Positions 3,490 to 44,208 of a DNA stretch of 47,216 nucleotides are shown here, piece after piece. The notes beneath the pieces were generated by a model. The model saw only the letters and a list, made by a program, of their open reading frames with translations, searched no databases and was not told where the DNA came from. The stretch covers positions 1 to 47,216 of the forward strand of contig JAMONZ010000028.1 of assembly GCA_027066315.1 (NCBI GenBank), in the 5' to 3' direction. The position numbers and the translations under genes are program-made. This DNA comes from Hyphomicrobiales bacterium. Lineage in GTDB: Bacteria; Pseudomonadota; Alphaproteobacteria; Rhizobiales; Devosiaceae. Positions within the stretch are counted from its first letter, which is position 1, and every line of letters starts with the position of its first letter.

Positions 3490-4385
3490 TATGGTTGCCC
3501 ACCTAATTTTGTAGTAGCGAGTGCGCCAAAGTGGTTTCCTTGAATAAGGCAATCATGCAAATTTTCTCCACCTTTTATCGCCCCAATAAAACCACCAAAA
3601 AAAGCATCTCCTGCACCCGTGCTATCAACTGCCTTAATTTTCTTTGCTTTAGCACTGGTGATTATTCCATCTTTATTGCCAGCGACTGAGCCATTTGCGC
3701 CCTGTTTAATTACAACCAAATCATAATTATAACTTAGCTGTTTTATCTGCTCTTCTAAATTTTGACTGCCCGCTAATAATGCAGCTTCCTCTTCATTTGG
3801 AAAAAACATTGCAGCACCCTTCGTCCAAACTAAAAATTGCTTCACTCCAACTTGGCGCAAAAAACTAAACGAAGCAGGATCAATAGAAAAAGGAATGTTT
3901 TTTTGTCTGGCTTGCTCTATTAATTTAAGTGCAACTTTACGAGGGCTAGTCTCAAAAAAGGCGTAGGCAGAAAGATGTAAAAGTGAAATATCATCAAAAA
4001 TATTTTTTTCAATATCATCAAGGCAAAGATTTATATTTGCACCTCTATCAGTAAAAAAACTCCGCTCACCATTCTCATCAACAAGCGTAACCAAATGCCC
4101 TGTTGGCAGGTTTTTATCACCAATAAAAACTGGTGTGATGTCTTTTTTTTCAAAATGATTTTGATAGTGACTTAAGTCATCTTGAGCAACTCGAGCTAAA
4201 AATTTAACAGGCACATTATTTTTACTTAGCCAAAGCGATTGATTAGCGGCTGACCCACCATTGTGTTGACTGATTTTAGCTCTTACGTCTGAGCCATGCA
4301 CCATTGCTCCTTTTGGGATAACGATTGTATCACGCATAATATCGCCAACGACCAAAACTCTATCAATCGTTGGCAGTTTTCCCAC
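3489..4385 (-). CDS. psuK: Pseudouridine kinase, PfkB family
   Basis: The 298-residue PfkB/ribokinase-family sugar kinase has an N-terminal glycine-rich motif (NGGSAANQSLWLS) and the C-terminal signature DSTGAGDAFFGGFIGA with the catalytic Asp. The adjacent gene encodes pseudouridine-5'-phosphate glycosidase, so the likely reaction is phosphorylation of pseudouridine to pseudouridine 5'-phosphate in the cytoplasm, the first step of pseudouridine salvage from RNA turnover. The start codon is GTG and shares one base with the psuG stop (TAGTG); the stop shares one base with the recQ start (TAATG). These single-base overlaps imply coupled translation of all three genes. The family assignment is firm; the substrate is inferred from context. 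Confidence 0.88.
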   Translation of the reverse strand: MGKLPTIDRVLVVGDIMRDTIVIPKGAMVHGSDVRAKISQHNGGSAANQSLWLSKNNVPVKFLARVAQDDLSHYQNHFEKKDITPVFIGDKNLPTGHLVTLVDENGERSFFTDRGANINLCLDDIEKNIFDDISLLHLSAYAFFETSPRKVALKLIEQARQKNIPFSIDPASFSFLRQVGVKQFLVWTKGAAMFFPNEEEAALLAGSQNLEEQIKQLSYNYDLVVIKQGANGSVAGNKDGIITSAKAKKIKAVDSTGAGDAFFGGFIGAIKGGENLHDCLIQGNHFGALATTKLGGQP

Positions 4386-5302
4386 TAGCTTTGATCCATA
4401 AAAGCCACAGCAATTTTGGCCGCAACTTTTGCATTATTATTAACCAGTGCAATATTTGCTTTTAGTGATTTTCCTTGGCTCATTTCAAATATGTTTTTGA
4501 GTAAAAATGGCGTAAGCTCTTTGCGAGATATGCCCTGCTTTTCTGCTTCCAAAATAGCCTTGCTAATATAGCCCTCAATTTCCTTTGCTTCCATCTCGTC
4601 CTTTTTAGGAATAGGATTGGCAATTAACACTCCAGCCATATCAAGTTGCCATTGCAATTTCAACATCTTGGCGATTTCTTTTGGTGTTTCAAAACTATGA
4701 TCTAGCGAAAATCCGCTTTTTCTAAGATAAAAAGCAGGGAAATCATTTGTTGCATAGCCAATGACAGGCACACCGTTTGTTTCAAGCACTTCCAAAGTTT
4801 TTGCAATATCAAGAATAGACTTTGCCCCCGCACAAACTACAGCCACAGGCGTGTTACTTAACTCATTTATATCGGCCGAAATATCAAATGTCTCACTTGC
4901 CCCACGATGCACCCCGCCAATTCCACCAGTCGCAAAAATCTTAATGCCAGCAAGTTCAGCAATAAACATAGTGGTTGCAACCGTTGTTCCTGCCATCTGC
5001 CCATTGCTCAAGATTGCCGCCATATCTTTGCGTGATGCCTTTGCCGCCTTATGCCCCTCTTTTGCCAAACGCTCCAAATTATCTTCGCTTAAACCTGCAA
5101 ACATCTTCCCGTCTAAAAGTGCAATAGTTGCTGGCACTGCGCCATTATCGCGCACTACTTGTTCAACTGATTTTGCCATGCTTAAATTTTGCGGATAGGG
5201 CATTCCATGCGTAATGATGGTGGATTCTAAGGCAACTATTGGTTTTTTGGCTAATATAGCGGTTTTTACTTCATCACTTATATTTAGATATTGTTTCATC
5301 AT
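4385..5302 (-). CDS. psuG: Pseudouridine-5'-phosphate glycosidase
   Basis: The 305-residue protein of the PsuG (indigoidine synthase A-like) family splits pseudouridine 5'-phosphate into uracil and ribose 5-phosphate, breaking a C-C glycosidic bond. Family motifs seen: VALESTIITHGMPYPQN near residue 23, GVHRGASETFDISADI, the catalytic-lysine region (ASRKDMA), and ANPIPKKDEM near residue 205. The length matches E. coli PsuG (312). It is the first gene of psuG-psuK-recQ on the minus strand. Two adjacent ATGs begin the frame, and no strong Shine-Dalgarno precedes them. A 20-base palindrome lies just upstream (5310-5329) and may be an operator or leader hairpin. Confidence 0.95.
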   Translation of the reverse strand: MMKQYLNISDEVKTAILAKKPIVALESTIITHGMPYPQNLSMAKSVEQVVRDNGAVPATIALLDGKMFAGLSEDNLERLAKEGHKAAKASRKDMAAILSNGQMAGTTVATTMFIAELAGIKIFATGGIGGVHRGASETFDISADINELSNTPVAVVCAGAKSILDIAKTLEVLETNGVPVIGYATNDFPAFYLRKSGFSLDHSFETPKEIAKMLKLQWQLDMAGVLIANPIPKKDEMEAKEIEGYISKAILEAEKQGISRKELTPFLLKNIFEMSQGKSLKANIALVNNNAKVAAKIAVAFMDQS

Positions 5303-34808: not shown

Positions 34809-35762
34809 ATGGCAAAACAATCACCTGAATTAAAAAGAGATATAATGCCATATCGTGACTGCGCGGGTTGTGTGGTTTTTAACTCAAAAGGGCAGGTCTT
34901 AATTTGTGAGCGTAAGTCCAAAAAACAAGGAAAGCATATCTGGCAATTTCCACAAGGGGGGATTGATAGCTTTGAAGAGCCAATTGATGCGGCTTTGCGT
35001 GAATTATATGAAGAGACATCTATCCGCTCGGTTTCTCTTCTTACGGCTGCGACAGATTGGATATATTATGATTTGCCAGATGAATATTTAGGCATTGCCT
35101 TAAAGGGAAAATTCCGTGGCCAGCGGCAAAAATGGTTTGCGTTTTTATTCGAGGGCAGCGAAGATGAAATTAACGTGATTAATCCAGCTAATGGTGAATA
35201 TGCTTCAGAATTTTCTAATTGGCGTTGGGAGAAGTTAAAAAAAACACCAAAACTCATCGTCCCTTTTAAGCAAGAAGCCTATAAGAAAATTGTATCTGCT
35301 TTTGAGCATATTGTCATAAACCTAAAAGAAAAATCTACGAAGGTTAAGGCGTTAAAAAGCAAACATTTAAATATGTGGGTGGAATTACGCCATAAATATT
35401 CACCTCAAGTTTCACGTAAAAACCATAGGGCTGAATCTCTTGCTCTCCTAAAGAGTAAAAAAGCAAAGTCTTTCGGCCTTTTCGAGGGAGATATTCTTAT
35501 TGGATTCGCTGAAGTTTATAAAAAGCAAGATGATGATGGCTCTGATATTGCTTGGCTAAATGGAATTTTTATAACCCAAGGCTATCGACAATGGGATTTG
35601 GATAAAAAACTACTTCAATCAGTTGAAAAATGGGCAAAAAAGAAAAATTTAAACAAGATAAATTCACAAGTATCATTGAATAATGAACGAGCAATTTCTT
35701 CACATATTGAGTTGGGTTTTGCAGAGGTTAAACGAGTGGTTAAATTTTCTAAACAGCTCTAG
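34809..35762 (+). CDS. rppH: RNA pyrophosphohydrolase RppH fused to an AAC(6')-like GNAT domain
   Basis: Residues 1-172 are a typical RppH: PYRDCAGCVVFNSKGQVLIC, WQFPQGGIDSFEEP and the Nudix helix RELYEETSI (residues 50-72), then GQRQKWFAFLF. RppH removes pyrophosphate from 5'-triphosphate RNA and so starts decay. Residues about 185-317 resemble aminoglycoside 6'-N-acetyltransferases: LNMWVELRHKYSPQ, IGFAEV, WLNGIFITQGYRQ, NERAISSHIELGFAEVKRVV. The acetyl-CoA loop, normally R-x-x-G-x-G/A, reads RQWDLDKK with no glycine, so catalysis is doubtful. The ORF is continuous, twice the usual RppH length, with a Lys-rich linker. It is the last gene before the atp operon, tail to tail. Confidence 0.85.
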   Translation: MAKQSPELKRDIMPYRDCAGCVVFNSKGQVLICERKSKKQGKHIWQFPQGGIDSFEEPIDAALRELYEETSIRSVSLLTAATDWIYYDLPDEYLGIALKGKFRGQRQKWFAFLFEGSEDEINVINPANGEYASEFSNWRWEKLKKTPKLIVPFKQEAYKKIVSAFEHIVINLKEKSTKVKALKSKHLNMWVELRHKYSPQVSRKNHRAESLALLKSKKAKSFGLFEGDILIGFAEVYKKQDDDGSDIAWLNGIFITQGYRQWDLDKKLLQSVEKWAKKKNLNKINSQVSLNNERAISSHIELGFAEVKRVVKFSKQL

Positions 35763-36280: not shown

Positions 36281-37870
<1,590 letters not shown>

Positions 37871-43231: not shown

Positions 43232-44176
43232 ATGAGGAAAAGTAGTTTGAGCGATTTTTTACTTTATTGCGATGAAAAAACCAACAAGGTAATCCTATCT
43301 TGGCTTGGTGAAATAAAAAGCGTGCGTCGCTTGGCTAAGAATAGTCTTGAGGCATACCAACGTGATTTAAATCAATTCATTAGGTTTTTATCAAATCACT
43401 TTGCGCAAACTATTAGTTTAAAAATTTTACAAGATTTAAAGCCAGCTGATTTTAGGAGTTTTTTGGCCTATCGGCGCAATTGTGATGTTAGCTCACGCTC
43501 ATTAGCTAGGTCGCTTTCGGCCATAAAAAGTTTTTTTACCTATCTTGAACAGCAAAATATACTGAAAAACGAAGCGTTAAATATTATCCGTGCGCCAAAA
43601 ATTGGCAAAAGCCTGCCAAAAGCCTTAAGCGTTGATGAGGCTAAAAATGCAATTTCCTCAATAAAAAATATGGAAGAAACTCCATGGGTAATGGCTCGTG
43701 ATACTGCTGTGCTTTCTCTATGTTATGGGGCAGGGTTGCGAATTTCTGAAGCCCTTTCTTTAAGTCAAGCAGACATTGAAACAAGTGCAATGAGAATTAT
43801 AGGCAAGGGCAATAAAATGCGACTTGTGCCACTAATGGAACCGGTAGCAAAGGCGATAAAAACCTATCTCAAATTATGCCCTTTTCCTTTAAATTCAAAT
43901 GAGCCAATTTTTAAAGGTGTAAAGGGGGGTGTTTTATCAGCTCGCCTAGTTCAAAGGCGTGCAGAGCAATTACGCATAAATCTTGGCTTGCCCCCTTCTG
44001 CAACCCCTCATGCCTTGCGCCATTCATTTGCCACACATCTGTTAGCAAAGGGAGGTGATTTACGCACAATCCAAGAATTGCTCGGCCATGCCTCACTTTC
44101 TAGTACACAAATTTATACAAAAGTTGATAGTGAGCAATTGCTAAAAAGCTATAAAGAGGCTCACCCAAGAGGGTAG
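43232..44176 (+). CDS. xerC: Tyrosine recombinase XerC
   Basis: The 314-residue site-specific recombinase resolves chromosome dimers at dif with XerD. The N-terminal SAM-like DNA-binding domain (NSLEAYQRDLNQFIRFLSNH) precedes the catalytic domain with Arg in CYGAGLRISEALSLS, Lys in IIGKGNKMRLVPL, the HALRHSFATHLLAKGGDLRT box, LLGHASLSSTQ and the nucleophile Tyr in IYTKVD. All catalytic residues are present. The divergent pairing with priA is familiar in Hyphomicrobiales. Its stop codon lies inside a 14-base triplicate repeat. Confidence 0.93.
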   Translation: MRKSSLSDFLLYCDEKTNKVILSWLGEIKSVRRLAKNSLEAYQRDLNQFIRFLSNHFAQTISLKILQDLKPADFRSFLAYRRNCDVSSRSLARSLSAIKSFFTYLEQQNILKNEALNIIRAPKIGKSLPKALSVDEAKNAISSIKNMEETPWVMARDTAVLSLCYGAGLRISEALSLSQADIETSAMRIIGKGNKMRLVPLMEPVAKAIKTYLKLCPFPLNSNEPIFKGVKGGVLSARLVQRRAEQLRINLGLPPSATPHALRHSFATHLLAKGGDLRTIQELLGHASLSSTQIYTKVDSEQLLKSYKEAHPRG

Positions 44177-44208
44177 TGACAAGAGGCTAGTGACAAGAGG
44201 ATAGTGAA
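44167..44208 (+). repeat. Three tandem copies of a 14-base repeat carrying Shine-Dalgarno motifs
   Basis: The units are AAGAGGGTAGTGAC, AAGAGGCTAGTGAC and AAGAGGATAGTGAA, contiguous from 44167 to 44208. The first holds the last codons and TAG stop of xerC. The third ends at the base before the TTG start of the next gene and supplies its AAGAGG ribosome binding site at normal spacing. Each unit contains both a binding-site-like AAGAGG and a TAG or TGA. Slippage duplication of a single ancestral junction is the likely origin. Confidence 0.85.

What the first reader, a model, noticed from the sequence alone, without database searches (positions are those of the whole stretch)
34809..35762. RppH fused to an AAC(6')-like acetyltransferase domain with a broken acetyl-CoA loop
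The Nudix half is a standard RppH. The second half follows AAC(6')-I proteins almost to the last residue (WLNGIFITQGYRQ, SSHIELGFAEVKRVV), but the R-x-x-G-x-G/A pyrophosphate loop is RQWDLDKK. An RNA-decapping-type enzyme joined to an antibiotic-acetyltransferase-like fold with a dead loop suggests a repurposed binding domain, perhaps for RNA, ribosomes or a protein partner. I know of no described RppH-GNAT fusion.
Basis: partly seen in the sequence, partly recalled or inferred. Interest (0 to 1): 0.75.

Follow-up and report, generated by a model that had tools for sequence, protein, structure and literature searches.

The report
RppH fused to AAC(6')-like acetyltransferase domain
In one genus of small-genome Hyphomicrobiales bacteria, the RNA-decapping enzyme RppH has fused with the acetyltransferase-like gene that sits right behind it in relatives, and in this one species the acetyltransferase half has lost its catalytic residues while keeping its fold.

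Summary
ORF 34809-35762 is one 317-aa protein: RppH (well above the NCBIfam cutoff) plus an AAC(6')-like GNAT domain whose pyrophosphate loop reads RQWDLD. It is not an error or one-off: all five genomes of the genus carry the fusion (54-67% identity to the window), and none of the other family, order, class and phylum genomes sampled does. Six family relatives in four genera keep rppH and an AAC(6')-like gene separate, overlapping by exactly 8 nt (e.g. ATGGTTGA). The fused domain groups with that rppH-linked GNAT (moderate support), so the fusion most likely arose by a frame-shifting indel in a translationally coupled pair. The fully broken loop is specific to this species. Two fused relatives have the canonical loop (RQNGLG), and all four others keep the two key acids (AAC(6')-Iy Glu79, Asp115). 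Only the window protein lost both acids and the loop glycine. Its GNAT appears to evolve faster (omega 0.18 against 0.07, rough), but neutrality is rejected. So the fusion came first, with a probably working acetyltransferase; catalytic loss came later on one branch. It is a new domain architecture built from two known families; substrate and benefit are unknown.

The parts
34809..35762 (+). Fused gene: RppH plus AAC(6')-like GNAT, 317 aa, last gene of a run of co-directional genes
   Evidence: Single ORF; same fusion in 4 other genomes of the genus
34809..35318 (+). RppH (Nudix) half, aa 1-170
   Evidence: NF001938 201 bits, cutoff 116; Z 21.1 to E. coli RppH 4s2y
34956..35024 (+). Nudix box, aa 50-72, GGIDSFEEPIDAALRELYEETSI; Gly50, Glu56, Arg64, Glu65, Glu68 and Glu69 present
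   Evidence: Direct reading; these residues invariant in the five fused proteins
35319..35345 (+). Linker, about aa 171-179, where the ancestral 8-nt stop/start overlap has been replaced by open frame
   Evidence: Junction compared with six unfused relatives; low-confidence stretch in the model
35346..35759 (+). AAC(6')-like GNAT domain, about aa 180-317
   Evidence: PF00583 above gathering score; NF043067 88 bits, below cutoff; fold Z 17.6 to AAC(6')-Iy 1s3z
35559..35561 (+). Asn251 at the position of AAC(6')-Iy Glu79 (beta-bulge)
   Evidence: Glu in all 32 other aligned rows
35586..35603 (+). Degenerate pyrophosphate loop, aa 260-265, RQWDLD
35667..35669 (+). Gln287 at the position of AAC(6')-Iy Asp115 (proposed general base)
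   Evidence: Asp in all 32 other aligned rows; role from PMC4964394

Best explanation
The protein is a genus-wide fusion of two genes that were probably already translationally coupled: rppH, and behind it an AAC(6')-like GNAT gene whose start overlapped the rppH stop by 8 nt. A frame-shifting indel at the overlap (net +5 nt, i.e. +2 modulo 3, relative to the unfused junction), with loss of the rppH stop, made one open frame. The RppH half should work as an ordinary RNA 5'-pyrophosphohydrolase. The GNAT half was probably a working acetyltransferase at fusion and still is in two or three sister species (substrate unknown). On the branch to the window species it lost its acetyl-CoA loop glycine, the beta-bulge Glu and the general-base Asp, so here it is most likely a folded but non-catalytic domain, kept under weaker purifying selection as a structural or regulatory tail of RppH. 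Shown: fusion, spread, residue losses. Supported but not proven: ancestry of the GNAT part, selection pattern. Inferred: RppH activity, loss of acetyltransferase activity, and any effect on RppH.
For: Fusion in 5 of 5 genomes of the genus and in no other genome of the 136 family, 397 order, 385 class and 398 phylum genomes sampled. Separate rppH and GNAT with an exact 8-nt overlap in G131, G118, G117, G103, G101 and G002. Fused plus adjacent GNATs are one side of a branch (UFBoot/SH-aLRT 80/96 and 81/91); fused alone 100/100 and 100/99. Residue table: all 32 other rows keep Glu79, Asp115 and the loop Gly; only the window loses all three. Graded drop in NF043067 score: unfused 114-139, G132 123, G133 and G135 113, window 88, G134 85. 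Codon models with a shared synonymous rate: RppH omega 0.042, GNAT background 0.066, window GNAT branch 0.176 (2dlnL 9.1); omega = 1 rejected (2dlnL 16.3). Unsaturated pair G133/G135: 21 synonymous and 9 non-synonymous codon differences in the GNAT. GNAT fold intact in the model: Z 17.6 to 1s3z, rmsd 2.2 over 132 residues.
Against: Support joining the fused GNATs to the rppH-adjacent ones is moderate, below the usual threshold. Synonymous sites are saturated on the long branches, so omega values are rough; with synonymous rates fitted separately per half the raised GNAT omega of the window branch disappears (0.075 against 0.066). An atypical loop does not by itself abolish acetyl-CoA binding. 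No activity or binding was measured.
Confidence: 0.6

Rival explanations
1. The window GNAT half is simply decaying: a passenger domain of a fused gene that has lost its use and will eventually be truncated.
For: All three key features lost, lower profile score than most sisters and raised omega in the shared-rate model; the adjacent GNAT of relative G101 is already split by a frameshift, so this gene may be dispensable in places.
Against: The frame is open to the last residue; neutrality on the window branch is rejected in the shared-rate model (2dlnL 16.3); the domain is still above the Pfam gathering score.
Confidence: 0.2
2. The GNAT half is still an acetyltransferase with an unusual loop and changed substrate, working together with RppH.
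For: AAC(6')-Ii works with the atypical loop R-K-N-Q-I-G, and some GNATs need no side-chain general base (PMC4964394); the fold is kept; sisters keep both acids.
Against: Loop Gly and terminal Gly/Ala are both Asp, putting negative charge at the pyrophosphate site; Asp115 and Glu79 are lost together, at positions invariant in 32 other rows.
Confidence: 0.12
3. One reading: RppH was joined to an already dead GNAT used as a binding domain for RNA, ribosomes or a partner.
For: The window protein taken alone fits. RppH is known to be regulated by a binding partner, DapF, in E. coli (PMC4227774).
Against: Fused sister proteins have the canonical loop and both acids, so the domain was probably not dead at fusion.
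Confidence: 0.07
4. Assembly or read artefact joining two genes.
For: The genome is a draft of 109 contigs.
Against: Five genomes carry it as intact frames at 54-67% identity to the window.
Confidence: 0.01

Closest known systems
RppH, RNA 5'-pyrophosphohydrolase (Nudix; E. coli RppH, NF001938)
   Same: Whole N-terminal half, Nudix box acids, fold (Z 21.1, 35% identity to 4s2y)
   Different: The relatives compared are mostly single-domain proteins of about 165-200 aa; here a second domain follows
AAC(6')-Iy / AAC(6') group E GNAT (NF043067; 1s3z)
   Same: Domain length, fold and about 30% identity; unfused relatives keep loop, Glu79 and Asp115, fused sisters keep the two acids
   Different: Below the family cutoff; Trp22 lost in all fused proteins; loop Gly, Glu79 and Asp115 lost in the window protein; fused to RppH
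rppH plus overlapping AAC(6')-like gene pair in G131, G118, G117, G103, G101, G002
   Same: Same two genes in the same order
   Different: Separate genes with an 8-nt overlap in another frame
AAC(6')-Ie-APH(2'') bifunctional enzyme
   Same: An AAC(6') domain in a two-domain fusion (PMC4964394)
   Different: Partner is an aminoglycoside phosphotransferase; the AAC is N-terminal and active

Membership tests
RppH | Score above the curated NCBIfam cutoff | tested here: met
   NF001938 201.2 bits, cutoff 116
RppH | Nudix box acids Glu65, Glu68, Glu69 | tested here: met
   Invariant in the five fused proteins
RppH | RppH fold | tested here: met
   Z 21.1, rmsd 1.8, 151 aligned to 4s2y
RppH | RNA 5'-pyrophosphohydrolase activity | not testable with these tools
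   Needs an enzyme assay
GNAT superfamily | Pfam GNAT domain above gathering score and GNAT fold | tested here: met
   PF00583 37.3 bits, cutoff 20.7; Z 17.6 to 1s3z
GNAT superfamily | Q/R-x-x-G-x-G/A pyrophosphate loop | tested here: not met
   RQWDLD in the window; met in G133 and G135. Some working GNATs also depart from this consensus, so it is not an absolute requirement
AAC(6') aminoglycoside acetyltransferase | Score above curated cutoff | tested here: not met
   NF043067 88 bits, cutoff 140; the unfused relatives are also below it, three of them just below
AAC(6') aminoglycoside acetyltransferase | General base Asp115 and beta-bulge Glu79 (AAC(6')-Iy) | tested here: not met
   Gln and Asn in the window; kept in all 32 other rows
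AAC(6') aminoglycoside acetyltransferase | Aminoglycoside 6'-N-acetylation | not testable with these tools
   Needs an enzyme assay

The most novel reading that the evidence does not exclude
An acetyltransferase that was coupled to, then fused with, the RNA-decapping enzyme RppH acts in the same pathway (for example by acetylating RppH, an RNA-decay partner or a polyamine), and in the window species has become a pseudo-enzyme that regulates RppH in cis.
Probability: 0.2. Interest if true: 0.7.

Novelty: new variant of a known kind. Interest (0 to 1): 0.4.

Why it matters
It gives an ordered series of states for one gene pair: overlapping separate genes, fusion with an intact acetyltransferase, then catalytic loss. 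If the GNAT affects RppH, it would be another kind of RppH regulator beside DapF and could link acetyl-CoA to the first step of bacterial mRNA decay. Otherwise it is a clean example of fusion by frameshift in an overlapping gene pair of a reduced genome.

Tried and rejected
Artefact: rejected, five genomes. Fusion elsewhere in the phylum: none at the thresholds used; none on plasmids covering 80% of the query; none in viral contigs. These searches would miss RppH joined to a very different GNAT. Separate synonymous rates per half gave saturated, poorly determined omegas, so rates were shared. Biopython dN/dS failed. The first fold search was filled by RppH matches, so the GNAT was modelled alone. 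The long frame reading into rppH from upstream in G122 has only a Nudix match and was not taken as a fusion. G196 has rppH, a small gene of about 160 codons and a GNAT in a row, but its GNAT does not fall with the coupled clade. Papers: none on an RppH-GNAT fusion in the held library.

Full report
What is there. ORF 34809-35762 on the + strand encodes 317 residues without a stop. The first 170 residues are an RppH: NCBIfam NF001938 at 201 bits against a cutoff of 116, Nudix box acids present, and a predicted fold matching E. coli RppH at Z 21. Residues 180-317 are a GNAT domain above the Pfam gathering score, nearest by sequence and among the nearest by fold to AAC(6')-Iy and its kin, but well below the curated AAC(6') cutoffs.

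Not an accident. The window is contig 28 of a 2.0-Mb draft genome, 98.7% complete. Related records name the group: a Hyphomicrobiales metagenome bin and an Alphaproteobacteria bin hold two of the sister copies. All five genomes of the genus, each about 2.0-2.1 Mb, carry the fusion, at 54-67% identity to the window and in open frames. The other genomes of the family, mostly 3-5 Mb, do not, and neither do the other genomes among 397 of the order, 385 of the class and 398 of the phylum at the thresholds used (these samples overlap and each includes the window's own genome). The genes downstream of the fusion differ between the window, G134 and G132, so it has outlived local rearrangement.

Where it came from. 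In six family genomes from four genera an AAC(6')-like gene follows rppH directly. The overlap is 8 nt each time: ATGGTTGA, ATGGCTGA, GTGTCTGA or GTGCCTGA, in which the TGA is the rppH stop and the first codon starts the GNAT. That layout suggests translational coupling (inference). From the last conserved Phe of RppH to the first GNAT strand, the window and G133 have 42 nt against 37 in the unfused G117 and G131 (read), a change of +5, which is what brings the two frames together. In trees the fused GNATs are one clade (100/100), and fused plus coupled GNATs stand apart from the family's other AAC(6')-like genes with moderate support (80/96 and 81/91).

The broken loop. AAC(6')-Iy has loop R88-Q-R-G-V-A93, a beta-bulge at Glu79-Gly80 and a proposed general base Asp115 (PMC4964394). 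The loops of the fused proteins are RQNGLG (G133, G135), RHKGLS (G132), RQMGLD (G134) and RQWDLD (window). Glu79 and Asp115 are present in all 32 other rows compared, fused and unfused, and are Asn and Gln in the window only. Trp22 is lost in all five fused proteins. So the fused lineage changed first in the acceptor pocket, then at the end of the loop on some branches, and lost the loop glycine and the catalytic acids in the window species alone. A changed loop alone would be weak evidence, since AAC(6')-Ii functions with R-K-N-Q-I-G.

Selection. With a synonymous rate shared by the two halves, omega is 0.042 for RppH, 0.066 for the GNAT and 0.176 for the GNAT on the window branch (2dlnL 9.1); omega of 1 there is rejected (2dlnL 16.3). 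Distances are saturated and only five sequences exist; with separate rates the increase is not seen. At the one unsaturated distance, G133 against G135, the GNAT shows 21 synonymous and 9 non-synonymous codon changes, which indicates constraint. The simplest reading is a maintained fold with relaxed active-site constraint in the window species.

Mechanism. RppH activity is expected from conserved residues (inference). The GNAT was probably an amine acetyltransferase of unknown substrate (inference from retained acids). In the window species it is probably non-catalytic and acts, if at all, as a tail on RppH. E. coli RppH is regulated by direct binding of DapF (PMC4227774, title and abstract), so cis-regulation by an attached domain is conceivable, but no evidence here shows it. 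The two predicted models are of middling confidence (mean pLDDT 77 and 79), built on shallow alignments, and say nothing firm on how the halves are arranged.

Verdict. Real, genus-wide, apparently undescribed in the papers held, and of moderate interest.

Noticed in passing
window 36281-37846 (-): atpD (ATP synthase beta) has a Lys/Ala/Pro-rich N-terminal extension of about 45 residues, encoded by imperfect 15-bp tandem repeats.
   Followed up: no
L063 1203-1647 (G101): The rppH-coupled GNAT gene is split by a frameshift in this relative: a decaying gene or a read error.
   Followed up: partly
L064 858-2328 (G196): In another family rppH is followed by a small gene that looks like an isoprenylcysteine-methyltransferase-type membrane protein (by eye, not scanned) and then an AAC(6')-like GNAT, with an atpC-like gene convergent further on; possibly an independent association.
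   Followed up: partly
L035-L039, about 3800-4995: Bradyrhizobium genomes carry two RppH paralogues in tandem, about 41-49% identical to the window RppH.
   Followed up: no
window 44166-44207: Three copies of a 14-bp tandem repeat CAAGAGGATAGTGA at the end of ORF 43232-44176.
   Followed up: no
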